A DNA stretch of 41,916 nucleotides from Candidatus Krumholzibacteriia bacterium (GTDB lineage Bacteria > Krumholzibacteriota > Krumholzibacteriia > JAJRXK01), in NCBI GenBank assembly GCA_035268685.1, contig DATFKK010000038.1:1-41916 (forward strand), given 5' to 3'. The notes below the pieces were generated by a model that worked only from the letters and a program-made list of their open reading frames with translations, did not search any database and was not told where the DNA came from. A program made the translations under genes and the position numbers. Positions 1,000 through 39,618 of the stretch are shown here, piece by piece. The number at the start of each line of letters is the position of its first letter. The first letter of the stretch is position 1.

Positions 1000-2164
1000 T
1001 CGTTCCTTCCGGGCGGCCGGTCTCATGATCGGCACCAGTCTCGACGGCGTGGACGCCGCGGTGGTGGAGTTCACCGCCGACCTGCGCGGCCATCGCCTGC
1101 TGGCCCACCGGACCTCGCCTCTGCGCGCTGCTGATCCGCAACGGCTGCGGGCCGTCGCGGCGGGTGCGGCGACCACCGCTTCCGAACTCAGCGCCCTGGG
1201 CTTCGCCCTGGTCGACGACCACGAACGTGCCCTGCGGCAGGTCTGTTCGGAAGCCGCGATCGATCCGGCCCGACTGGACTGGGCGGCGGCGCACGGAGTC
1301 ACCCTGTGGCACGCTCCCGCCGCACGTGGCGGGCACGGGTGGCAGCTCCTCCCCGGCCCCGCCCTCGCCGCGCGGCTCGGCTGCCCGGTGGTCCACGATT
1401 TCCGCAGCGCGGACCTCGCGCTCGGCGGTCACGGCGCGCCGCTGGCTCCGGTGGCCGACCGACTCCTGCGCGCGTCGTCCGACGAGGACCGCGTGGTCCT
1501 GAACCTGGGGGGCATTGCCAATCTGACTGCTCTGCCGGCCGGGGCCGAAGTGATCCTGGCCGCCGACGTCGGACCGGCGAACCTGCCGCTCGACGAGATG
1601 GTGCGACGTGCCGACCCCGAGGGTCCGGGCTACGACCGCGACGGCGCGCTCGCCGTGACGGGCCGTGTGGTGCCGGAGCTCGTCGCGGCGATCCTGGCCG
1701 AGGACTGGGTCCGCGCTCCGCTGCCCCGGAGCTGGGGGCGCGAGGAATTCGGTCCGCGTTGGGTCGACTCGATCGAGGCGCGCGCGCCCGGCACCGGCCT
1801 CGTCGATCGCCTCGCGTCGGTGATCGAGGCCGAGAGCCGTGCGCTCGCCTGGTTGCTCGACGAGGGTCTGGGTGGGTGGAAGCGGGCACACAGCGCCACG
1901 CACCTGCTGGTGACCGGCGGAGGGCGCCACAACCGGGCCGCGATGCGCGCGCTCGAACGGGCGCTGCCGGGTGTGGTGCTGGACGGGATCGAGGTCCTCG
2001 GCGAGGATGCCGACGCCAAGGAAGCCGTGGACTTCGCGCTGCTCGGTGGGCTCTGTGTGCAACGACGCGGCGCGGGTGTGGAATCGACCACGGGCGCGCG
2101 GGGCGACACCGTTCTCGGCAGCCTCGCGCCCGGACGAACCGGGATCAGGAGAACCGATGCGTGA
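992..2164 (+). CDS. anmK: anhydro-N-acetylmuramic acid kinase AnmK
   Basis: This kinase opens and phosphorylates 1,6-anhydro-MurNAc to MurNAc-6-phosphate in the cytoplasm, recycling the product of lytic transglycosylases. The 390-residue length fits the family. Visible motifs: MIGTSLDGVDAAVVEF near the N-terminus (family MSGTSLDGxD, the ATP/sugar site), VVLNLGGIANLTALP in the middle, DVGPANLPLDEM (family DxGPxN) and GGGRHNRAAM near the C-terminus (family GGGxxN). The ATG at 992 overlaps the upstream stop by 8 bases (ATGGTTGA), and the gene's own stop overlaps the next start by 8 bases, so translation is probably coupled. The neighbours, a SpoIID-type lytic enzyme and a NagZ-type hexosaminidase, act just before it in the same pathway. 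Confidence 0.95.
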   Translation: MVDRSFRAAGLMIGTSLDGVDAAVVEFTADLRGHRLLAHRTSPLRAADPQRLRAVAAGAATTASELSALGFALVDDHERALRQVCSEAAIDPARLDWAAAHGVTLWHAPAARGGHGWQLLPGPALAARLGCPVVHDFRSADLALGGHGAPLAPVADRLLRASSDEDRVVLNLGGIANLTALPAGAEVILAADVGPANLPLDEMVRRADPEGPGYDRDGALAVTGRVVPELVAAILAEDWVRAPLPRSWGREEFGPRWVDSIEARAPGTGLVDRLASVIEAESRALAWLLDEGLGGWKRAHSATHLLVTGGGRHNRAAMRALERALPGVVLDGIEVLGEDADAKEAVDFALLGGLCVQRRGAGVESTTGARGDTVLGSLAPGRTGIRRTDA

Positions 2165-3455
2165 ACGGATCCGTCGAGTCCTGGTGGTACTGTGGCTGGT
2201 GGCCTGGACCAGTGCCTGCGCGGCGCCCCCGGCCGACGGCATCGTATCCGATCCCTCGGACTTCGAGCCCGACCGCGGGCGGACCGACGTCCGCGTGGCT
2301 CTGGCCTTCGCGGCTCCGTCGGTGACCTTCGAGGCGACGGGCGACGTGCGGGTGTTCGCGGAGGGCGATCGCTGGCGCGGATCCGCCGGTGCCTACCACG
2401 CCACGGTCCGTGCGGGTGAACTGGTCCTGACCGCCCCGTCGGGCGGACGGGTCGAAGCGAAGTCGACGATCGATCTGCGGGCCGCCGACCCTGCGCCGTG
2501 GCGCTTCGACGGCGATCGCTTCGCAGGTTCGCTCACCGTACGGCGCAACGACGACGGCACCGTGAGTCTGGTCAACACGCTCCCCGTCGAGACCTACCTG
2601 CGCGGCGTGGTGCCGTGGGAGATCGGTCGCCCCGGCGAGGACGCGCGCGCGGCCGTCGAGGCCCAGGCCGTCGCGGCGCGCACCTACACCTACGCGCGTC
2701 TCGGACGCTGGGAAGAGTACGGTTTCGACCTCCACGCCGACGTCCGCGACCAGGTGTACCGCGGTCTCAGCGGTACGGCGCCGATCTGCGACGAAGCCAT
2801 TCGGGCCACCGCGCACCGGGTCGCGGTGCGCGACGGCGCGTTGATCCGGGCCTACTACAGCTCGACCAGCGGTGGGCACACCGCCACGCTCGTCGACGTC
2901 TGGCACCGCGAGGGCGCACCCTACCTGATCGGCAAGCGGGACGCGGATGCCCGGGGGCGCAGTTGGTGTCGGACGTCGCCGCACTTCCGGTGGACCGAGT
3001 CGTGGTCGGCGAAGGAACTGGGCGACATCGTTCGCGAGCACCTGTCCTCCGAACTCGATCGATCTCTCGCACCCGAGGACATCGGCGTGCTGCAACGGAT
3101 CGACGTCGTCGCGCGCGACCACTCGGGGCGGGTGCAGCGTCTGGCCGTGGTCACCGACGTCGACCGCTTCGAGATCTGGGGCGATCGGATCCGCTGGGTG
3201 CTGCGACCGGTCGGGTCGCGCTACGGGATCCTCCGCAGCACGTTGTTCACCGTGGAGAACGTCGAGCGCGACGGTCGTCTGGTGGGGGTGGTGCTGCGCG
3301 GTGGCGGATTCGGTCATGGCGTGGGCATGTGTCAGACCGGAGCCCTGGCCCGCGCCCGTGCCGGTCAGGGCGCAGGCACGATCCTGCGCGCGTACTACGA
3401 AGGGATCGACGTCGTCGACGTGCGTTCGCTCGACGGGTGGAAGCTCGCACGGTGA
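2157..3455 (+). CDS. SpoIID/LytB-domain lipoprotein, probable lytic transglycosylase
   Basis: The start is ATG 2157, with an AGGAGA ribosome site about 6 bases upstream and an 8-base overlap with anmK; an in-frame upstream extension is only anmK shadow. The 432-residue product begins MRERIRRVLVVLWLVAWTSAC, a lipoprotein signal with Cys21 as the acylated residue. The SpoIID domain is clear: LPVETYLRGVVPWEIG with the catalytic-type Glu155, AVEAQAVAARTYTYARLG, YYSSTSGGHT and GFGHGVGMCQTGALARA. SpoIID-type enzymes cleave glycan strands stripped of peptides and leave anhydro-MurNAc ends, the substrate type that NagZ and AnmK then process. The envelope location and the gene order agree. This organism need not sporulate, since SpoIID-domain proteins are widespread in non-sporeformers. 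Confidence 0.9.
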   Translation: MRERIRRVLVVLWLVAWTSACAAPPADGIVSDPSDFEPDRGRTDVRVALAFAAPSVTFEATGDVRVFAEGDRWRGSAGAYHATVRAGELVLTAPSGGRVEAKSTIDLRAADPAPWRFDGDRFAGSLTVRRNDDGTVSLVNTLPVETYLRGVVPWEIGRPGEDARAAVEAQAVAARTYTYARLGRWEEYGFDLHADVRDQVYRGLSGTAPICDEAIRATAHRVAVRDGALIRAYYSSTSGGHTATLVDVWHREGAPYLIGKRDADARGRSWCRTSPHFRWTESWSAKELGDIVREHLSSELDRSLAPEDIGVLQRIDVVARDHSGRVQRLAVVTDVDRFEIWGDRIRWVLRPVGSRYGILRSTLFTVENVERDGRLVGVVLRGGGFGHGVGMCQTGALARARAGQGAGTILRAYYEGIDVVDVRSLDGWKLAR

Positions 3456-4837
3456 GCGACCCGCGTCCGGCGCTGGTGGGCCTCTCCGGCCCCGCACTCG
3501 ACGACGACGAACGCGACCTGCTGGCGCGCCTGCGACCGCAGGGCGTGTTGTTGTTCGAACGCAACGCGACCGACGAGCAGCAATTGCGGGCGTTGACCCA
3601 CGAAGTCGACGCCCGGTTGCGTGACGCAGGGGTCGACACGCCCCTCGTGGCGTCGGACACCGAGGGCGGGATCGTCTTCCCGTTGCACCGCGTGCTGGAT
3701 CCCGGCCCCGGTGCGACCACCCTGGGCTGGATCGATCGGACCGAACTGACCGAGACCGTCCACGCCGACCGCGGGGCACGACTGCGGGCGTCGGGAGTGA
3801 ACCTGGTACTCGCGCCGGTCGCCGACGTGGACGTGGCCGGTAATCCGGTGATCGGAACGCGTGCCTTCGGACGCGACCCGGAGCACGTCCGGCGTCACGT
3901 CGCCGCCGCCGTGCGCGGTCTGCACCGCGGCGGCGTCGCGTGTTGCGTGAAGCACTGGCCCGGCCACGGGGCCGCGCGGGTGGACAGTCATCTGGAACTC
4001 CCGGTTCTCGACCGCGACGACGCCGCGCTGCGTGCGGTCGACGCCCCGCCCTTCGAGGACGCCGTCGCCGCGGGTGTCGACGCCGTGATGACGGGACATC
4101 TCCGCGTGCCGGCATGGCAGTCCGTCGGGACCGGTCCGGTGAGCGTGGACCCGGCCGCCATCGCCCGGCTGCGCAGCACGCTCGGGTTCGACGGACCGTT
4201 GCTGGGCGATGCCATCGAGATGCAGGCGCTCGCCGGCTACGGCCCGGGCGCTCTGCGGTCGGCAGGACTCGACCTGGTCCTGTTCGCGGCACCGCTCGCA
4301 CGGATCGAGACCGCGGTGCGGGAGCTCGACCCCACTCCGGCGCACGCCTGGCACGTGCCCGCTGCGCCCCGGACCGAACCGGCGTCCGAGGTGCCCTGGG
4401 ACTTCGCTCTGCGCCGCGACGGGGAATGGCCGGTTCCGTCGCCGCGACGGTGGTGGGTGGTCGACGAAGCCGGTGGCGATCGCCTGCTCCGCGTTCCCGA
4501 CGACACGGCCGATCCGCTCGGTCACGGCCATGCCACCGGACACCGAGCGTGGGAGAACGCCCTCGCGCCGATCGCCGACCACGTCGACGTGATCACGATC
4601 GAGCGTCTGGCCGACCTCGAACCCACGAGCGACGAGGGCGTGGCCTTGCTCTCGGTCCGGTCCGGACGCTTCGACGATCTGTCCGATCGGATCGCCACGC
4701 TGCGGCCGGCGGCGTGGCTCCTGGGTGGTGCCGCGGCGATCGACGATCTGCGGGTGGGACCAGGAGTGGCGGCGGCTCGCTGCGCCGAGGTGCGGCCGCG
4801 TCTGCTGGAGCGTGTCCTGCGCAGCGGAGCCATTTGA
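3452..4837 (+). CDS. nagZ: glycoside hydrolase family 3 beta-N-acetylhexosaminidase (NagZ-type)
   Basis: The start is GTG 3452, inside a GTGA overlap with the spoIID-like stop. The 461-residue protein shows the NagZ signature KHWPGHG (residues 167-173) followed by VDSH (177-180), whose Asp-Ser-His supplies the mobile-loop acid/base His180, and DAVMTGHLRVP. LLGDAIEMQAL places the nucleophile Asp at 253. NagZ removes GlcNAc from GlcNAc-anhydroMurNAc or muropeptides, feeding AnmK. About 130 residues after the catalytic barrel (with segments such as WWVVDEAGGDRLLRVP) form a C-terminal extension; many single-domain NagZ enzymes are shorter, near 340 residues. No signal peptide is seen, so it is probably cytoplasmic. 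It is the last gene of the recycling operon. Confidence 0.9.
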   Translation: MSDPRPALVGLSGPALDDDERDLLARLRPQGVLLFERNATDEQQLRALTHEVDARLRDAGVDTPLVASDTEGGIVFPLHRVLDPGPGATTLGWIDRTELTETVHADRGARLRASGVNLVLAPVADVDVAGNPVIGTRAFGRDPEHVRRHVAAAVRGLHRGGVACCVKHWPGHGAARVDSHLELPVLDRDDAALRAVDAPPFEDAVAAGVDAVMTGHLRVPAWQSVGTGPVSVDPAAIARLRSTLGFDGPLLGDAIEMQALAGYGPGALRSAGLDLVLFAAPLARIETAVRELDPTPAHAWHVPAAPRTEPASEVPWDFALRRDGEWPVPSPRRWWVVDEAGGDRLLRVPDDTADPLGHGHATGHRAWENALAPIADHVDVITIERLADLEPTSDEGVALLSVRSGRFDDLSDRIATLRPAAWLLGGAAAIDDLRVGPGVAAARCAEVRPRLLERVLRSGAI

Positions 4838-24219: not shown

Positions 24220-26913
24220 ATGGACGCGGAACGCTATCGGCGCGTCAAGTCCGTCCTGCTCGAGGCTCTCGAGCAGCCGGCGACTGCGCGGCCGGGCTTC
24301 CTCGCCGCCCGGTGCGGAGACGACGACGAGCTCCGCCGTGAGGTCGAGGAGCTTTTGGCGCAGGAGGAGTCCGACCACGCGATCCTCGACGAGGGCGTGC
24401 TCGGCGCCGGGACCCGTGGGCATCTGCGCGCCACGATCGATCAGCTGGGTGACGGTGTCGCCGTGCCCGAAGTGATCGGTCCGTACGCCATCGTCGGTGT
24501 TCTCGGCGAGGGCGGCATGGGCATGGTCTACCACGGCCGGCAGTCCGAGCCCGTCGCCCGCGACGTCGCGGTCAAGGTCCTCCGCCCGGGCCTCGACGGC
24601 CGCCGCGTGCTCGCCCGCTTCGAGTGGGAGCGCAAGGCGCTCGCCCGGCTGGACCATCCGAACATCGCGCGTGTGCTCGACGCAGGCACCGACGACGCCA
24701 CGCAACGCCCGTACGTCGCGCTGCCGCTGATCGAGGGCGAGACCATCACCGCGTACTGTGACACGGCGGATCTCTCGCTGGAGGTGCGGCTGCAACTCTT
24801 CCTGCGGGTCTGCCGCGCCGTCGAGCACGCCCACGCGCGGGGTGTCCTGCATCGCGACCTGAAGCCGGGCAACGTGCTCGTGCAGGAGATCGACGGTGAG
24901 GCGGTCCCCGCGGTGATCGACTTCGGGATCGCCAAGGCCCTCGACACCGACACCACCGGCATCGACGCGACGATGACGGTCGAGGGACAGCGCATCGGCA
25001 CTCCGGCCTACATGAGTCCGGAACAGCTCCACGGCGATCCCGGTTCGGCCGATGTCCGAACGGACGTGTACGCGCTGGGCGTGATCCTCTGGGAGATGCT
25101 CACCGGAGTCCACCCGTTCGGCGAGGCGGTCGAGTCGGTCACCCGGGCGCTGCAGGCCGGTCGCGAACCGACGGCGCTGGCTCCACCCTCGCGTGCTCCG
25201 ACCGTCGACACGGGAACCGTCGAGCGCTGGCGCCGTCGCCTGCGGGGGGACCTCGACACGATCTGTCTGCGGGCCGTCGAGTTCGATCGCACACGGCGCT
25301 ACGCGTCGGCCGCCCACCTCGCCGATGACGTCCAGCGCTTCCTCGAGGGTCGCCCGATCCTGGCGCGACCGGACTCGTTCACCTACCGCCTCGAGAAGTC
25401 GATGCGTCGTCATCCCGTGGTGACGACCGCCGTGGCCGGTGCGATCGCGGTCCTGCTCACCGGGGCGGGTCTGCTCGTTGTGAACGCGCAGCGTCTCGGC
25501 GTGGAACGCGATCGCGCGGTGGCTGCCGAGCACCGGGCCCGTGCCGAGGCGGAGCAGGCCCGTGCGATCTCGACCTTCCTGACCGAGCTGTTCACCGAGG
25601 TCGACCCCGTGAGCGGCGACGCCGCCGATCTCAGCGCGCGCGAGCTGCTCCGGCAGGGCGCACGGCGGGCACGGGTGGACCTCGCCGGTCAGCCCGAGCT
25701 GCGCGGGCCGCTGCTCAACACGATCGGCTTCGTGCACCACCAGCTGGGCCTCTACGCCACCGCCGAGACCCTTCTCGTCGACGCGATCGACGACCTGCAG
25801 GTTGTCGGGGATGCGCGCGGCGACTCGTTGACGATGGAAGCCTACCGGTCGTTGGCGGTCAACCTGCACGACCAGGGTCGCTACGCCGAGGGAGAGGCCG
25901 CCGCGCGCGAGGCCCTGGCCATCCACGATCGCCTGTACCCACGATCGAAGCCGAGCTACGCGGTCATCCTCAGTGACCTCGCGGTCGACGTGCAGGCGCA
26001 GGGGCGACTCGAGGAGGCGGTCGACCTCCTGAAGCAGGCGTTGGCGTTGCAGGAAGCCGCCGAGGATCCCCGCATCGGCGAGATCGCATGGACGCGGGGA
26101 ACGATCGGCTACGTGATCAGCAAGATGGACCGCATGGAGGAATCGGAGGAATGGCTGCGCTCGGCCTACGAGCTGTTCGTGACGCAGCCGGAGGACGAGC
26201 AGAACCCCTGGGAGCTCGTGTACCACCTGAACAACCTCGGCGGTGTGAACTCGCGTCTCGGGAACTACGAGGAGGCCCAGCCCTATCTACGGCGCGCACT
26301 CGAGGTGAGTCGCGAGATGCACGGCGACGACCACGCCGTGGTCGGTCGGGCCTATTCCATGCTCGGAACCGCGCATCTGCGAGCGGGTGACACCGACGTC
26401 GCCGCGCCCCTCGTCGAGAAGGGCTTGGAGGTCACGCTGCGCGCGGTCGGTCCCGACCACATGCTCACCAGTCGCGTGCTCGGGTCGGTCGTCGCATTGC
26501 GACGGGCGCAGGGTCGTTTCGACGATGCCGTGGTCCACGCACGCGAGGCGCACCGGATCCGGCGCGACGTGCTCGGCGAGGACCATCAGCTCTTCGCCGA
26601 CGTCCAGTTCCAGCTCGCCGAGTGTCTCCTCGACGTGGGGGACGCCACCGAAGCGCTCGTGTTGGTCGACTCCGCGCTCTCGACCTATCGCGCGGAGCGC
26701 GAACCGACCCACGCACGGATCCTCGAGCTGCGAACCCTGCGCGCGGGAGCACTGGACGCGCTGGGGCGCGATGCCGCGGCGGCCTCGGAGCTCGAGGGAC
26801 TGATCGACGACCTGGCGGCCCGTCACGGGGCGGACGACGACTGGACGCGACGAGCCGAGGAGCTGGCGCTGCGCGTCGGAGCCACCACCGCCGGAGGGTC
26901 CGACCCTCGCTGA
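24220..26913 (+). CDS. transmembrane Hanks-type Ser/Thr protein kinase with TPR sensor region
   Basis: The 897-residue protein has an N-terminal helical region (1-85, PATARPGFLAARCG) typical of this subfamily. The kinase domain (about 88-375) has the glycine loop GEGGMG (96-101), catalytic Lys119 in VAVKV, HRDLKPGN with Asp213, DFG at 234-236, and GTPAYMSPEQL. All catalytic residues are present. One membrane helix (about 399-421) follows, then a short coiled coil rich in Arg/Ala/Glu. Tetratricopeptide repeats run from about 470 to 870 (LLNTIGFVHHQLGLYATAETLL, YLNLHDQGRYAEGEAAARE-like units), probably in the periplasm. It probably phosphorylates cytoplasmic partners in response to protein binding at the TPRs. 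Confidence 0.93.
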   Translation: MDAERYRRVKSVLLEALEQPATARPGFLAARCGDDDELRREVEELLAQEESDHAILDEGVLGAGTRGHLRATIDQLGDGVAVPEVIGPYAIVGVLGEGGMGMVYHGRQSEPVARDVAVKVLRPGLDGRRVLARFEWERKALARLDHPNIARVLDAGTDDATQRPYVALPLIEGETITAYCDTADLSLEVRLQLFLRVCRAVEHAHARGVLHRDLKPGNVLVQEIDGEAVPAVIDFGIAKALDTDTTGIDATMTVEGQRIGTPAYMSPEQLHGDPGSADVRTDVYALGVILWEMLTGVHPFGEAVESVTRALQAGREPTALAPPSRAPTVDTGTVERWRRRLRGDLDTICLRAVEFDRTRRYASAAHLADDVQRFLEGRPILARPDSFTYRLEKSMRRHPVVTTAVAGAIAVLLTGAGLLVVNAQRLGVERDRAVAAEHRARAEAEQARAISTFLTELFTEVDPVSGDAADLSARELLRQGARRARVDLAGQPELRGPLLNTIGFVHHQLGLYATAETLLVDAIDDLQVVGDARGDSLTMEAYRSLAVNLHDQGRYAEGEAAAREALAIHDRLYPRSKPSYAVILSDLAVDVQAQGRLEEAVDLLKQALALQEAAEDPRIGEIAWTRGTIGYVISKMDRMEESEEWLRSAYELFVTQPEDEQNPWELVYHLNNLGGVNSRLGNYEEAQPYLRRALEVSREMHGDDHAVVGRAYSMLGTAHLRAGDTDVAAPLVEKGLEVTLRAVGPDHMLTSRVLGSVVALRRAQGRFDDAVVHAREAHRIRRDVLGEDHQLFADVQFQLAECLLDVGDATEALVLVDSALSTYRAEREPTHARILELRTLRAGALDALGRDAAAASELEGLIDDLAARHGADDDWTRRAEELALRVGATTAGGSDPR

Positions 26914-26973
26914 AGCGCCCGTGGCGCGACCTGTGCTTCCGGCGGCGCATTCCCATGGCGAGCACGGTCGGGA

Positions 26974-27003
26974 TCGACAACGAACGCCTCCCGCGCCTAG
27001 AGT
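26974..27003 (+). promoter_or_regulatory. putative promoter of the ClC gene
   Basis: TCGACA (26974-26979), an 18-base spacer and TAGAGT (26998-27003, in CTAGAGT) end 10 bases before ATG 27014. The short distance would give an almost leaderless transcript, with initiation near 27010. Confidence 0.4.
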
Positions 27004-27013
27004 GCGCCCGATC

Positions 27014-29083
27014 ATGAAGACTCCCCGGGCCTGGCTGTCCCAGCTCCGTCGCCGGCTCCTCGCCGGCACCGAGCGGCGCACTCCGAGCGAGAGCGCCCTG
27101 CTCGTGCTCATCCCCGTGGTGGGCGTGGTCGTGGGCTTCTCGTCGATCGGCATCGCACACCTGATCGCCCTTCTGCAGGAACCGCTCTGGGGCCACGGCA
27201 GCGATCTGCTGGCCGGGGCCATGCAAGCGAGCTGGCAGGAACGGGTGTTGATCCCGGCCGCGGGAGGACTCCTGCTCGGACTGCTCGGTCTGGCCCTGCG
27301 CGTGCGCATGCAGGGCCGTGGCACACCGGGGATCATCCAGGCGCTGGCGCTGCAGAACGGTGTGATCTCGCTGCGGCGCAACGCGCCGGGGACCGCGGGC
27401 GGGATCCTGACCGTGGCCTTCGGGGGCTCGCTCGGCCGCGAGGGCCCGATGATGGAATTCGGTGTGGCGGTCAGTTCCTGGATGGGACGCCGTCTGCACC
27501 TCGAGCCGCAGGACCTGCGGATCCTCGTCTGTGCGGCGGCCGCTGCGAGTCTGTCGGCGGCCTACAACGCGCCGATCGGGGCCTCGCTCTTCGCGCTCGA
27601 GGTCCTGATCGGAAGCCTGGCGCTGCCCGTGTTCGGACCGGTGGTGGTGGCGTCGATCATCTCGACGTTGATCGCGCGCAACGCCATGGGTTCGCTGCCG
27701 CGCTTCGTGGTGCCCGAGTACGAACTCGTGTCGGTCTACGAACTCGGCGGCTATCTCGTGCTGGGTCTGGTGGCCGGCGTGTTCTCGGCCGGCGTGATCC
27801 GGGCCGTCGGGTGGTGCGACAAGGGTGCCGGGCGCCTGCGATTGCCGCGCTTCCTCGCGCCGGCGATCGGATTCGCGCTGGTGGGCGGCATGGGCGTTTG
27901 GTTGCCCCACGTGTACGGCAACGGCTACGAGACCGTGAACCTGGCGCTCAACGAGCAGCTGCCGATCGAGCTGTTGATCGTGCTCCCCTTCGCCAAGTTG
28001 ATCGCCACCGTGCTCACGCGCTCGAGCGGCGGGGCGGGCGGAATGTTCACGCCGACACTCATGATGGGGGGCTTGCTGGGCGGTGCCTTCGGGACCGCGC
28101 TGCACTCCTTCTTTCCCGAGTCGACGGCCACCCCGGGAGCCTACGCCCTGGTGGGCATGGCCGCGGTGCTCGCCGGCACCACGCACGCGCCGCTCATGGC
28201 GATCCTGATGATCTTCGAGCAGACCGACTCGTACCAGATCATCCTGCCGCTGATGCTCGTCAGTACCATCAGTTATGCCACCGCCCGCCGGATCAAGCGC
28301 GAGTCGCTGTTCGTCGACGCGCTGAATCGACAAGGCGTGGACCTGCCGCGTGGTCCGGAAGAAGGCGTCATGAAGAGCCTGCGGGTGCGGAACGTCATGC
28401 ACGACGATCCGGAGGCGGTGCACCGTGCAGCCCGGTTCCAGACGATCGTCGAGGCCTTCCTGCGCCATCGCTTCAATCACTTGTACGTGATCGACGACGA
28501 CCATGCCTTCGTCGGCGCGATCCCGTTGCACGAGATCAAGGAGATGCTCGAGCACGCCGACACGTTGGAGGTGGTGGTCGCGCACGATCTCGTCGAGACC
28601 GACTTCGCGTTCGCCACTCCCGACGACACCCTGGCCACGACCATGGAGAAGTTCTGGTCGCAGAACTCCGAGCGTCTGCCCGTGCTGGCCGACACGAAGT
28701 CACGCCGGCTGGTCGGCTGGATCTCCAAGCGCGACCTGATCGGCGTGTACAAGCAGGAGATCCTGGGCGAGGGAAACCTCCTCAGCCGCCTGGGGCCGGT
28801 GGGGGATCGCGCGCGCGACCGTTTCGTCGAATTGCCCGAGGGATTCGAAGTCGCCAGCGTGCACGTTCCGCCCACCTATGCGGGCAGCACGCTGCGTGAC
28901 CTCGCGCCCCGGCGGACCTGGGGCTTCTACGTGCTGCAGATCACCCGGCGCGACCCGGAGCGCGGAGTGCGGGTCGTCGAGATGCCCGACGCGGACACCG
29001 TGCTGCAACCCGAGGACGAACTGGTCGTGGTGGGGCCGGTCGACGGGGTGCAGAGCTTCCGACGGTCGAGCCGGGAGGGGTGA
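27014..29083 (+). CDS. ClC-family chloride channel/transporter with CBS pair and RCK_C-like tail
   Basis: ATG 27014 starts a 689-residue protein; a longer upstream frame lacks support. The ClC core shows MQGRGTPGIIQAL (selectivity-filter loop; Ser of GSGIP replaced), the GREGP motif at 141-145 with gating Glu143, and GGAGGMFTPTLMMGG (GxFxP). Two CBS domains follow (about 455-575: VRNVMHDDPEAV, YVIDDDHAFVGAIPLHEI, LPVLADTKSRRLVGWISKRDL). A TrkA-C/RCK_C-like domain ends the protein (FEVASVHVPP...LQPEDELVVVGPVDG). CBS modules usually sense adenine nucleotides; the added RCK_C domain suggests a second ligand such as a cyclic dinucleotide. The gating Glu suggests H+/Cl- exchange. Confidence 0.92.
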   Translation: MKTPRAWLSQLRRRLLAGTERRTPSESALLVLIPVVGVVVGFSSIGIAHLIALLQEPLWGHGSDLLAGAMQASWQERVLIPAAGGLLLGLLGLALRVRMQGRGTPGIIQALALQNGVISLRRNAPGTAGGILTVAFGGSLGREGPMMEFGVAVSSWMGRRLHLEPQDLRILVCAAAAASLSAAYNAPIGASLFALEVLIGSLALPVFGPVVVASIISTLIARNAMGSLPRFVVPEYELVSVYELGGYLVLGLVAGVFSAGVIRAVGWCDKGAGRLRLPRFLAPAIGFALVGGMGVWLPHVYGNGYETVNLALNEQLPIELLIVLPFAKLIATVLTRSSGGAGGMFTPTLMMGGLLGGAFGTALHSFFPESTATPGAYALVGMAAVLAGTTHAPLMAILMIFEQTDSYQIILPLMLVSTISYATARRIKRESLFVDALNRQGVDLPRGPEEGVMKSLRVRNVMHDDPEAVHRAARFQTIVEAFLRHRFNHLYVIDDDHAFVGAIPLHEIKEMLEHADTLEVVVAHDLVETDFAFATPDDTLATTMEKFWSQNSERLPVLADTKSRRLVGWISKRDLIGVYKQEILGEGNLLSRLGPVGDRARDRFVELPEGFEVASVHVPPTYAGSTLRDLAPRRTWGFYVLQITRRDPERGVRVVEMPDADTVLQPEDELVVVGPVDGVQSFRRSSREG

Positions 29084-35542: not shown

Positions 35543-37687
35543 TCATTCGAACTTCACGTCGTCCAGATAGAACGTGATCGGCCGCCCCTGACCCTCGAGT
35601 CGCCAGAAGAAGGGCGACTTGACCTGGGTCAGGTTTCGACCCTTCAACTCGATCGTGTAGCGCTGCCACTCGCGTGTCAACGCGACGCCTTTCAGGACCT
35701 CCCGGACGGTGTCGGGATAGAGTTTGCCGCGTCCCAGCAGACCGATGCCGAAGTCGATGATCTCGCCGCCCTCTGCGCCGCGTGCCCACAGCGTCAGGCG
35801 CTTGGCGCCCGTCAGGTCCAGGCCCCCCGGGCGATCGCCCCAGTCGTTGGCAGGATGCTGCCACACGACACCGACCCAGCCGTCCGGGCTCGAGTAGGTG
35901 ACTTCGAGGCAGGTCGGGCCGCTGTGCGGTGATTCGGTACACACCGGGTCCACGGTGAGTGCATCGAAGTTGCCCATCCATCCCGACGGTGCCCACAGGC
36001 CGCGACGGCCATCGGCGTAGACGGTCCGCGGCAGCCGGAAAAGGGGCAGGATCGTCTGCCGGACGTACTCGGTGATCGGTACCAGGAAGAGCGCGGCGAG
36101 GGTCAGCACGGGAAGTGCGACGGTGGCCATCAGCGTCGGGTCGAGCTCGCCGCCGAAGGCCGTGAGCGCGATCAACAGTGGGAACGCCGTGACGAACGAG
36201 ACCACGAGCACCAGGCTCTGCGCCCGGACGATGCCCCCGATCGACGTGCCGTGGGCACCCTTCGGCGTGATCACGAAGTCCTTCAGGCCGCGGTGCAGTC
36301 CCTCGGCCACGCCGATCCCCGCGTGCGCGAACAGCGGAAGACGCCACAGGGCCTGCACCGGGTAGGCGACGAACACGCGCAGGGCCTTCGAAGGGTCCCC
36401 CCCGCGGACGTAGTTGATCGCCGACGCGCTGTTGATCACCAGGAACGGGCTCTGCAACACCACGGACACGATGCCGAAGCCCAGCACACTTCGCGACACA
36501 TCGCCCGTCAGCACGAACAGGATCCAGAGCGGAAACAGCAACTGCGCGACCAGCCCGGGCAGGACGCTCGCGTTGGCGGCGAAGCGCAGGAAGAGCGACA
36601 GACGCATGTTCCACGGCAGGTCCGAACGCAACCATTCGACGAGGTGGAGCCTGGCCAGTTCGGTCCCGCCGGTGGCCCACCGGCGCTTCTGCTTCTGCTG
36701 TCCGGCGACGTGGGGAGGGCTCAGTTCGGTCGACACCATGGCTGGATCGTCGGGTGCGTAGTCGACCCACTTCCCCCGCCAGCCCTTGATCATCATCGTG
36801 ATCCCGGTGCTCCAGTCCTCGGCGACCCGGGCCTCGTTCCAGCCTCCGATCTCTTCGATCGCAGGCAGGCGCAGCAGGGCGCAGTGGCCGTTCATCGTCG
36901 GGATACCGTAGTGCGCGATGTAGCCCTCGGTGAAGCGGCGCGCCGCGTCACCGACGTGGCTGTCCGACCAGTTGATGATCGAGTCGCGGGGATTGCCGAT
37001 CCGGAACATGCCCTGCACGAAGCCGAGCTTCGGGTCGCGCACGAACTCGGTGGCCATCGGACGCAGCACTTTCGGTGCGAAGGTGTCGCCCACGTCCAGA
37101 AGGCCGACCAGGACGTCCTGCCCGCGAAGATCCTCCTCGATGATGCGCAAGCCACGGTTCAGGTTGCCGGCCTTGAATCCGACCGTGCCCTCCCGATGCA
37201 CGGCCTGCACGCGCGGATCGTCGGCGTAGATCCCCTGGACCTCCTGCCAACGGTCGTCGTCGCTGTTGTCGACGAACTGCACCGCGATCCGTTCGGAGGG
37301 ATAGTCGGCGTTCAGGACGGAATCGATGCTGCGAACCACGAGATCGGTCGGTTCGTTGCGTCCGGGCACCTGGACGATGATCCGGGGCAGCCGTTCTTCC
37401 TCGACCGGCTCGGGGGCTTCGACGATCGGCCGCGGCCCGCGCACGAGCGCGACGCCCGCGTAGACCCACAGGGGCGCGGCGACGAACACGTTGCCGAGCG
37501 CGACGATCACGGTCACCGCGACCATGAGCGCGATGACCGGAGAGTGGGCCTGCACGAGCAGGCCGCACAGCCACGCCCCCAGTGCGAGGTGGCCGACCAG
37601 GTAGACCAGGGCGAAGACGATCATCGCCGCGTGGACGCGCTTTCCAGGCGTGTCCAGGAGTCCGGATCCACGGAACGTGCTCACCAC
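35543..37687 (-). CDS. membrane glycosyltransferase family 2 (cellulose-synthase-like) with C-terminal jelly-roll-like domain
   Basis: GTG 37687 starts a 714-residue processive-type GT2. Two N-terminal helices (about 20-45, 50-82) precede the catalytic domain: VQFVDNSDDD (Asp140), LLDVGD (198-201, DxxD metal site), VAEDWSTGITMMI (Glu290-Asp291-Trp292, the catalytic-base region) and Q333-KRRW337, the QxxRW polymer-binding motif. Five or so helices follow (about 365-550). The last 140 residues are beta-rich with aromatics (GWVGVVWQHP, KRLTLWARGAEGG, WQRYTIELKG, ITFYLDDVKF), like a CBM11-type galactose-binding-fold domain, presumably outside the membrane. The product is probably an exported beta-glucan or related polysaccharide. 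A GCGCC-GGGA-GGCGC hairpin (37737-37750) lies in its leader. Confidence 0.87.
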   Translation of the reverse strand: MVSTFRGSGLLDTPGKRVHAAMIVFALVYLVGHLALGAWLCGLLVQAHSPVIALMVAVTVIVALGNVFVAAPLWVYAGVALVRGPRPIVEAPEPVEEERLPRIIVQVPGRNEPTDLVVRSIDSVLNADYPSERIAVQFVDNSDDDRWQEVQGIYADDPRVQAVHREGTVGFKAGNLNRGLRIIEEDLRGQDVLVGLLDVGDTFAPKVLRPMATEFVRDPKLGFVQGMFRIGNPRDSIINWSDSHVGDAARRFTEGYIAHYGIPTMNGHCALLRLPAIEEIGGWNEARVAEDWSTGITMMIKGWRGKWVDYAPDDPAMVSTELSPPHVAGQQKQKRRWATGGTELARLHLVEWLRSDLPWNMRLSLFLRFAANASVLPGLVAQLLFPLWILFVLTGDVSRSVLGFGIVSVVLQSPFLVINSASAINYVRGGDPSKALRVFVAYPVQALWRLPLFAHAGIGVAEGLHRGLKDFVITPKGAHGTSIGGIVRAQSLVLVVSFVTAFPLLIALTAFGGELDPTLMATVALPVLTLAALFLVPITEYVRQTILPLFRLPRTVYADGRRGLWAPSGWMGNFDALTVDPVCTESPHSGPTCLEVTYSSPDGWVGVVWQHPANDWGDRPGGLDLTGAKRLTLWARGAEGGEIIDFGIGLLGRGKLYPDTVREVLKGVALTREWQRYTIELKGRNLTQVKSPFFWRLEGQGRPITFYLDDVKFE

Positions 37688-37811: not shown

Positions 37812-38699
37812 TCAGTCGCCGATCACCATGCGCCGCGTGATCTCGGCATCGGCGGTCCGGATCCTCGCTTCGTACACGCCCGGAGGAAGCCGGTGACCCG
37901 CGTCGTCCGTTCCGTCCCAGCGGACGACGCCGTCGGCGCGGTCGGTGTCGTCACCGATCACCGTTGCCACCCGCCGGCCGTTCGCGTCGTGGACGTCGAT
38001 CCCGATGCCGCCGCCTTCGGGCAGGACGAAGTCGAATCCGTTGCTCGTCGCCGCCGGCCGCGACCCGGGAGGAGATGCGTCGACCGCAGGCAAGGCCATT
38101 CGGGCCGGGGTCCGCCGCGAGTCGACGTACAGGTCCGCGTTGGGGCCGTAGAAGATCCGCATCGAATCGTAGGCCAGGCCGAGGCTCTCGGCGGCCGGAC
38201 CGACCTCTCCACTCGAGGCGTTGTAGCTCGACAGCCTGGCCCCGACCAGTTCGATCGCCATGTAGACCCCCGGCGGGAACATGCGACGCCCGAGCGCGTC
38301 GCTCCCGCCGGTCGTCAGTTTCGGCAAGGGCTCGTACACGTGGAGGACGAACCGGCTGAACTCCTCTGCATTGCTCTGGGCCCTCAGGAGCTTGATCGAC
38401 GAGGAATCCCACGCCTTGCTCAGGAAGAGGTCCGCGCTGGAGATCGGACCGGCGGGTCCGCCGTCCGGCTCGATGGCACGACCGGTTCCCCACTGGAACG
38501 ACGTGATCTCGATCGTCCCCTCCTCGCCGGGGAAGGTCGCGTCACCGTCGATCGGTCCCTGGAAGCGCCCATCGAGATCGAGGAAGATCTGGGCGTGGGT
38601 CGCCGGCACGGCGGTCAGGAGGATCAGGACGACGAGAGCGAAGATGCGAAGCACGGGCGCCTCCATGGGGCGGGTGTGGGTGTCTCGGCGCGCACTCAT
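37812..38699 (-). CDS. Sec-secreted Hcp-like protein with FlgD-like C-terminal domain (copy A)
   Basis: ATG 38699 overlaps the stop of copy B (ATGA), the preferred start; ATG 38666 also gives a full signal peptide. The 295-residue protein has signal cleavage near Ala36-Gln37 (PATHA/QIFLDLDG). The mature N-terminal domain resembles Hcp, the type VI secretion tube protein family: DLDGRFQGPIDGD, IEITSFQWGTGRA, DLFLSKAWDSSSIKLL, and LGLAYDSMRIFYG. The C-terminus (GIGIDVHDANGRRVATV, VRWDGTDDAG, PPGVYEARI) is an FlgD/T9SS-type Ig domain. True Hcp proteins lack signal peptides, so a different job is implied, perhaps an envelope-anchored or secreted fibre. No other T6SS or T9SS gene is in the window. 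Confidence 0.78.
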   Translation of the reverse strand: MSARRDTHTRPMEAPVLRIFALVVLILLTAVPATHAQIFLDLDGRFQGPIDGDATFPGEEGTIEITSFQWGTGRAIEPDGGPAGPISSADLFLSKAWDSSSIKLLRAQSNAEEFSRFVLHVYEPLPKLTTGGSDALGRRMFPPGVYMAIELVGARLSSYNASSGEVGPAAESLGLAYDSMRIFYGPNADLYVDSRRTPARMALPAVDASPPGSRPAATSNGFDFVLPEGGGIGIDVHDANGRRVATVIGDDTDRADGVVRWDGTDDAGHRLPPGVYEARIRTADAEITRRMVIGD

Positions 38700-39517
38700 C
38701 GCATCACCGACATCTTGTGGGTGGTCAGCCAGGCGCCGGAGCGCATCTTCACGAGGTAGACCCCGCTGGCGACGGGACGTCCGACGCTGTCGCGTCCGTC
38801 CCAGGAGATGCTGCCCTCCGATCCGCGGGTCTCGCCCTCGAAGACCGTCACGACGTGCCGGCCGCGGAAGTCGAAGACATCGATGGCGACCGAGCCCTGT
38901 TCCGGCACCCGGAAGCGGAAGTCCGTCGCCCCCGACGTGGGATTCGGCATCGACGCCACCGCGACGTTCTCCGCGAGCGCGTCCGGCAGGACCGACGACG
39001 CTCCGCCGGTGTCGGTGTAGACTTCGCCGGTGTCGAAGTCCCTCCACTCGAATCCGGTGTAGGTGAGCGAAAGGGCCTCGACGGCGCGAGCTCCGTCCGC
39101 CGCCCCGGAAACGGACCAGGACGTGATACGGGCGTCGGTCAACGTGATACGCAGATAGAGCTGGGACCCTCCCACGTCGTCGGGGCGGAAGGCTTCCAGG
39201 AAGCACGTGGTCATGCGTTCGGCGTTCCCGAACGCCCGGAGGATCGGGATCGTCGCCACGTCGGTCTGCTTGGTGATCGACAACTCCGAGGTCTGACTGG
39301 GCCCACTGGGGAGTCCCGTCGAGGGATCGATCGGCACGAAGAACCCGACCTGGAAGCTGGTGGTGGCGATGGTGCCCGTGAGTGGCCCCAGGTCGACGTC
39401 GCCGTCGATGGGCCCCTGCGTCTCACCCGCCAGGCGGAGATACAGCTGAGCCGTCGCCGGCGGGGCGACGCCCAGAAGGAGCGCGGCGAGCAGCAAGAAG
39501 AAGACCGAGCGGGGCAT
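38696..39517 (-). CDS. Sec-secreted Hcp-like protein with FlgD-like C-terminal domain (copy B)
   Basis: ATG 39517 follows GGAGG by 5 bases. The 273-residue protein has a clean signal peptide (hydrophobic FFLLLAALLLGV, cleavage near Ala23-Gln24). The mature start QLYLRLAGETQGPIDGD parallels copy A (QIFLDLDGRFQGPIDGD). Hcp-like marks: IATTSFQVGFF, ELSITKQTDVATIPILRAF, LYLRITLTDARITSW and LSLTYTGFEW. The C-terminal sorting-type domain is clear: MPNPTSGATDFRFRVP, VAIDVFDFRGRHVVTV, ISWDGRDSVGRPVASGVYLV. That 'NP..G.t.i.f..p' opening is the usual T9SS type A/FlgD form. Copies A and B are probably ancient tandem duplicates that now diverge strongly. Co-transcribed, copy B first. Confidence 0.8.
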   Translation of the reverse strand: MPRSVFFLLLAALLLGVAPPATAQLYLRLAGETQGPIDGDVDLGPLTGTIATTSFQVGFFVPIDPSTGLPSGPSQTSELSITKQTDVATIPILRAFGNAERMTTCFLEAFRPDDVGGSQLYLRITLTDARITSWSVSGAADGARAVEALSLTYTGFEWRDFDTGEVYTDTGGASSVLPDALAENVAVASMPNPTSGATDFRFRVPEQGSVAIDVFDFRGRHVVTVFEGETRGSEGSISWDGRDSVGRPVASGVYLVKMRSGAWLTTHKMSVMR

Positions 39518-39598: not shown

Positions 39599-39618
39599 AG
39601 GGCGACAAAAAACGCCCT
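39599..39618 (-). terminator. weak terminator-like hairpin after the serine hydrolase
   Basis: AGGGCG (39599-39604) and CGCCCT (39613-39618) enclose an A-rich 8-base loop. On the minus strand the stem is followed by TCTTTCC, moderately T-rich, about 70 bases beyond the hydrolase stop. The 6-bp stem and wrong-side A/T loop make it weak. Confidence 0.35.

What the first reader, a model, noticed from the sequence alone, without database searches (positions are those of the whole stretch)
37812..39517. Tandem Hcp-like proteins with Sec signals and FlgD/T9SS-like tails
Both products combine a cleavable signal peptide, an Hcp-type domain (tube protein of type VI secretion, normally signal-less and cytoplasm-loaded) and a C-terminal Ig domain used for surface sorting in FCB-like bacteria. 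The mature N-termini start alike (Q-hydrophobic-aromatic-L). This looks like the Hcp fold reused as an exported structural or adhesive protein, beside a polysaccharide synthase and a secreted hydrolase.
Basis: partly seen in the sequence, partly recalled or inferred. Interest (0 to 1): 0.8.

Follow-up and report, generated by a model that had tools for sequence, protein, structure and literature searches.

The report
Exported Hcp tube-fold proteins without T6SS
Two neighbouring genes encode the ring protein of a bacterial "harpoon" (type VI secretion), but here it carries an export signal and a surface-sorting tail, in a genome where the harpoon parts searched for are missing, so the ring fold appears to have been reused outside the cell.

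Summary
Two genes overlapping by 4 bp (B 38696-39517, A 37812-38699, minus strand) each encode a Sec-type signal peptide, an Hcp domain (PF05638, E 6e-18 and 9e-13) and a C-terminal Ig domain of FlgD / type IX secretion (T9SS) type. Predicted structures match solved Hcp at Z 20.3 and 19.8; B's tail matches the C-terminal domain of the T9SS sortase PorU (Z 9.3). The genome (99% complete) has no match to the T6SS sheath (TssC) or baseplate (TssK), but has the T9SS translocon SprA and 97 T9SS-tail matches. Among 80 genomes of the phylum the two kinds of Hcp separate: 7 with signal-less Hcp have T6SS genes, 4 with signal-bearing Hcp do not. Planctomycetota repeat this, with no tail or a short dockerin-like tail. 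Pooled: 0 of 12 genomes with signal-bearing Hcp have T6SS markers, against 14 of 15 with signal-less Hcp. The Hcp fold has thus been recruited, probably more than once, as a T6SS-independent exported protein. Whether it forms rings outside the cell, and what it binds, is untested. The link to the neighbouring polysaccharide synthase is not conserved. New variant of a known kind: one survey discarded PEP-CTERM-tailed Hcps without studying them.

The parts
38696..39517 (-). gene B: exported Hcp-fold protein, 273 aa
39449..39517 (-). B signal peptide, residues 1-23, possible cleavage ATA|Q
   Evidence: hydropathy and -3,-1 site
39044..39442 (-). B Hcp domain, residues 26-158
   Evidence: PF05638 E 6.2e-18; Z 20.3 to Hcp1 4hkh
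38699..38959 (-). B C-terminal Ig / T9SS sorting domain, about residues 187-273
   Evidence: TIGR04183 30.5 bits; Z 9.3 to PorU C-terminal domain
37812..38699 (-). gene A: exported Hcp-fold protein, 295 aa
38592..38699 (-). A signal peptide, residues 1-36, possible cleavage THA|Q (alternative start at residue 12)
38151..38585 (-). A Hcp domain, residues 39-183
   Evidence: PF05638 E 8.8e-13; Z 19.8 to Hcp1 4hkh
37815..38057 (-). A C-terminal FlgD-type Ig domain, about residues 215-295
   Evidence: FlgD_ig 29.4 bits; below the TIGR04183 cut-off
38696..38699 (-). ATGA overlap of B stop and A start
39599..39618 (-). terminator-like hairpin between the S12 hydrolase gene and B (weak)
   Evidence: 3 sites found, 2.0 expected

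Best explanation
A and B are a tandem pair of T6SS-independent, exported Hcp-fold proteins. They cross the inner membrane by Sec (inferred from the signal peptides), fold in the periplasm and cross the outer membrane through the T9SS, guided by the C-terminal Ig domain (inferred from the tail type and SprA in the genome), to be displayed on or released from the surface. The Hcp domain keeps the canonical fold and, in B, the length of the loop that stacks rings. Most likely it still forms hexameric rings or short stacks outside the cell, perhaps A/B mixed, as a surface layer or a holder of small cargo (inferred, about 50%). Shown: domain make-up, predicted fold, no TssC or TssK match, SprA present, recurrence elsewhere. 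Not shown: localisation, oligomer, ligand.
For: PF05638 and tail matches; fold Z 20.3 and 19.8, B tail Z 9.3 to PorU; no TssC or TssK in a 99.33% complete genome; SprA and 97 tail matches; same architecture in three more genomes of the phylum, also without TssC/TssK; signal-bearing Hcp in eight Planctomycetota genomes without TssC or TssK; pooled 0/12 vs 14/15; ungapped match of B to Hcp3 across the extended loop.
Against: No localisation, oligomer or ligand data. Signal peptides judged by hydropathy only. A's tail is below the T9SS domain cut-off. Only two T6SS markers were searched; draft genomes. PorU and other T9SS genes were not searched. Comparison loci were not drawn at random and ancestry was not corrected for.
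Confidence: 0.75

Rival explanations
1. The Hcp barrel is used as a monomeric binding module (for glycan, protein or a surface) displayed by the T9SS, with ring formation lost.
For: T9SS tails usually sit on surface enzymes and adhesins (general knowledge); A's loop regions differ from canonical Hcp; A has an insertion of low confidence in its Hcp domain.
Against: Core and, in B, the extended loop keep the register of canonical Hcp; no binding site is known.
Confidence: 0.4
2. An exported Hcp ring acts as a carrier or chaperone of a small secreted partner, as Hcp does for effectors inside the T6SS.
For: Known lumen binding of effectors by Hcp (PMC8262886).
Against: No conserved neighbour that could be a cargo: contexts differ in L050-L052.
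Confidence: 0.12
3. The pair is a remnant or spare part of a T6SS that is missing from the assembly.
For: Hcp is normally a T6SS part; the assembly is a draft of 202 contigs.
Against: No TssC or TssK match, while the same searches give E 1e-103 to 1e-133 in sister genomes with signal-less Hcp. Export of Hcp would remove it from the cytoplasm, where the T6SS tube is built (general knowledge). The architecture recurs in other genomes without T6SS markers.
Confidence: 0.03

Closest known systems
Hcp / TssD, inner tube protein of the T6SS (PF05638, TIGR03344)
   Same: Sequence family and predicted fold (Z about 20); extended loop kept in B.
   Different: Signal peptide, C-terminal Ig tail, and no TssC or TssK in the genome.
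T9SS type A cargo proteins (TIGR04183 / Por_Secre_tail)
   Same: Signal peptide plus C-terminal sorting domain (B above the cut-off), SprA in the genome.
   Different: Cargo domain is an Hcp fold; I found no report of Hcp as T9SS cargo. A's tail is below the cut-off.
Hcp genes with a PEP-CTERM sorting signal (removed from the Hcp survey PMC8262886)
   Same: Hcp domain with a C-terminal surface-sorting signal.
   Different: Other sorting system; those genes were filtered out of that survey, not described.
Evolved Hcp with C-terminal toxin domains (general knowledge)
   Same: Hcp with a C-terminal extension.
   Different: Those lack a signal peptide and leave by the T6SS; here the extension is a sorting-type Ig domain.

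Membership tests
T6SS_HCP domain family (PF05638) | profile score above the curated cut-off (23.5 bits) | tested here: met
   65.8 (B) and 49.1 (A) bits
T6SS_HCP domain family (PF05638) | Hcp beta-barrel fold | tested here: met
   predicted models, Z 20.3 and 19.8 to 4hkh
TssD, T6SS tube protein (TIGR03344) | score above the curated cut-off (58.9 bits) | tested here: not met
   54.2 (B) and 25.3 (A); relatives L051 and L052 pass with 60.5 and 62.2
TssD, T6SS tube protein (TIGR03344) | T6SS sheath and baseplate genes in the genome | tested here: not met
   no TssC or TssK; other T6SS genes not searched
TssD, T6SS tube protein (TIGR03344) | cytoplasmic, no signal peptide | tested here: not met
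   signal-peptide features, (hydropathy only)
TssD, T6SS tube protein (TIGR03344) | hexameric rings that stack into a tube | not testable with these tools
   single-chain prediction only
T9SS cargo | C-terminal sorting domain over the TIGR04183 cut-off (23 bits) | tested here: inconclusive
   B 30.5 meets it, A 16 does not (FlgD_ig 29.4 vs 27)
T9SS cargo | Sec signal peptide | tested here: met
   hydropathy and cleavage-site features; SignalP not available
T9SS cargo | T9SS translocon SprA in the genome | tested here: met
   TIGR04189, 463 bits vs 200;
T9SS cargo | SprA-dependent export and processing by the sortase PorU | not tested
   needs genetics; PorU was not searched in the genome

The most novel reading that the evidence does not exclude
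Bacteria without a T6SS export Hcp by Sec and a lineage-specific sorting tail and assemble it outside the cell into rings or tubes (surface layer, nanotube or cargo cage): a tube built extracellularly, independent of any contractile machine, that has arisen several times.
Probability: 0.3. Interest if true: 0.85.

Novelty: new variant of a known kind. Interest (0 to 1): 0.6.

Why it matters
Hcp is treated as a hallmark of the T6SS. Here it is an exported protein in genomes without T6SS markers, in two phyla, with tails that fit each lineage's sorting route. If it still forms rings, it would be an extracellular tube built without a contractile machine, and would show which Hcp features serve ring-building rather than injection. 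There is a practical point too: relatives in genomes without TssC or TssK pass NCBI's TssD cut-off, so Hcp alone is not a safe T6SS marker.

Tried and rejected
Viral contigs: no relative of B or of the Hcp-domain alignment. PHROGs: no match. Plasmids: two weak matches only, annotated as Hcp-family T6SS effectors. Operon link to the polysaccharide synthase and the S12 hydrolase: neighbours not conserved in L050-L052. Single origin of the signal-bearing Hcps: the tree needs 6 changes of the label, 5 forced by well-supported branches (few columns and some long branches, so rough; gains and losses are not separated). Literature: no paper found on Sec- or T9SS-exported Hcp. Naming the phylum: the records say only 'bacterium'; left open.

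Full report
What is there. On the minus strand, gene B (38696-39517) and gene A (37812-38699) overlap by the four bases ATGA. Both products start with a signal-peptide-like stretch (hydrophobic maxima 2.98 and 3.19, against 0.27-0.70 for three signal-less Hcps), continue with an Hcp domain (PF05638, E 6.2e-18 and 8.8e-13) and end in an Ig domain. B's tail passes the T9SS type A sorting cut-off; A's passes only FlgD_ig. A and B are 36% identical, so they look like an old tandem duplication.

Fold. AlphaFold2 with a six-sequence alignment gave mean pLDDT 74.9 (B) and 70.3 (A); most of the Hcp core is at 70-90, and a low-confidence linker precedes the tail. VIA-align scored them against E. coli Hcp1 (4hkh) at Z 20.3 (2.2 A, 147 residues) and Z 19.8 (2.1 A, 146 residues). 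Tubes of phages and extracellular injection systems follow at about Z 9-11. The tail of B matched the C-terminal domain of PorU (6za2, Z 9.3, 26% identity).

Genome. The 4.59 Mb draft (99.33% complete) holds only these two PF05638 matches, no TssC and no TssK. It has the T9SS translocon SprA (TIGR04189, 463 bits) and 97 T9SS-tail matches at E <= 0.01.

Phylum. Of 80 genomes held, 11 have PF05638. Seven carry Hcps without a signal (in G051 the gene is cut by the contig end, so its N-terminus is not seen). All seven have TssK and six have TssC, which lies close to hcp on the same contig in five. Four (G000, G035, G037, G038) carry signal + Hcp + tail, and none has TssC or TssK. All 12 genomes of the phylum that were tested have SprA. 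The other three genomes of the window's family have no Hcp, so the trait is patchy.

Beyond the phylum. A scan of named genome contigs found the three phylum relatives and one Planctomycetota protein, L053, with a signal peptide and a short dockerin-like end (the dockerin match is below Pfam's cut-off). In 392 Planctomycetota genomes, 87 have PF05638. Among the loci examined, eight genomes have proteins with a signal-like N-terminus: L053, L119, L096, L097, L098, L090 and, less surely, L091 and L111. None of the eight has TssC or TssK; of eight comparison genomes with signal-less Hcp, seven have TssC. Pooled with the phylum: 0/12 versus 14/15, Fisher p 7.5e-7. The loci were not chosen at random and ancestry was not corrected for, so the number is a guide only.

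Origins. In a tree of 83 Hcp domains the window pair and the three phylum relatives group together (96/87). The signal-bearing label needs 6 changes, 5 of them forced by well-supported branches. This suggests several recruitments, though gains and losses cannot be told apart.

Mechanism. Sec export is inferred from the N-termini, and outer-membrane passage by T9SS from the tails and SprA. Tail type follows lineage: T9SS-type where SprA exists; dockerin-like or none in Planctomycetota, where none of six tested genomes has SprA. The Hcp core keeps its register with Hcp3 and EvpC, including the extended loop in B, so ring formation is plausible but untested. An adhesive or structural use is a guess. 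The neighbouring polysaccharide synthase and S12 hydrolase are not conserved neighbours.

Prior knowledge. A large Hcp survey removed Hcp genes with PEP-CTERM signals before building its tree (PMC8262886), so exported Hcps have been seen but, as far as the held literature shows, not studied. I found no paper on an Hcp with a T9SS-type tail. Hence 'new variant of a known kind'.

Noticed in passing
L111:608-1828 (-), G435:C225: A 407-aa protein with a signal-like start, a tail-fibre-like stretch (GRVGIGTTSPASALDVAGTI) and two Hcp stretches, in a Planctomycetota genome without TssC or TssK.
   Followed up: partly
L058 (G454:C20): A high-scoring signal-less Hcp in a genome where neither TssC nor TssK was found.
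   Followed up: no
L051, L052, L053, L119: Signal-bearing Hcps in genomes without T6SS markers pass NCBI's TssD cut-off and would be named T6SS tube proteins.
   Followed up: yes
L084 (G188:C111) 1987-3638: Three signal-less Hcp genes in a row in a T6SS-positive Planctomycetota genome, one on a very long branch.
   Followed up: no
window 35543-37687 (-): Family 2 glycosyltransferase (polysaccharide synthase-like) with about 150 further C-terminal residues outside the Pfam match.
   Followed up: no
window 24220-26913 (+): Ser/Thr protein kinase fused to TPR repeats, followed by a CLC channel with CBS and TrkA-C domains (26921-29083).
   Followed up: no
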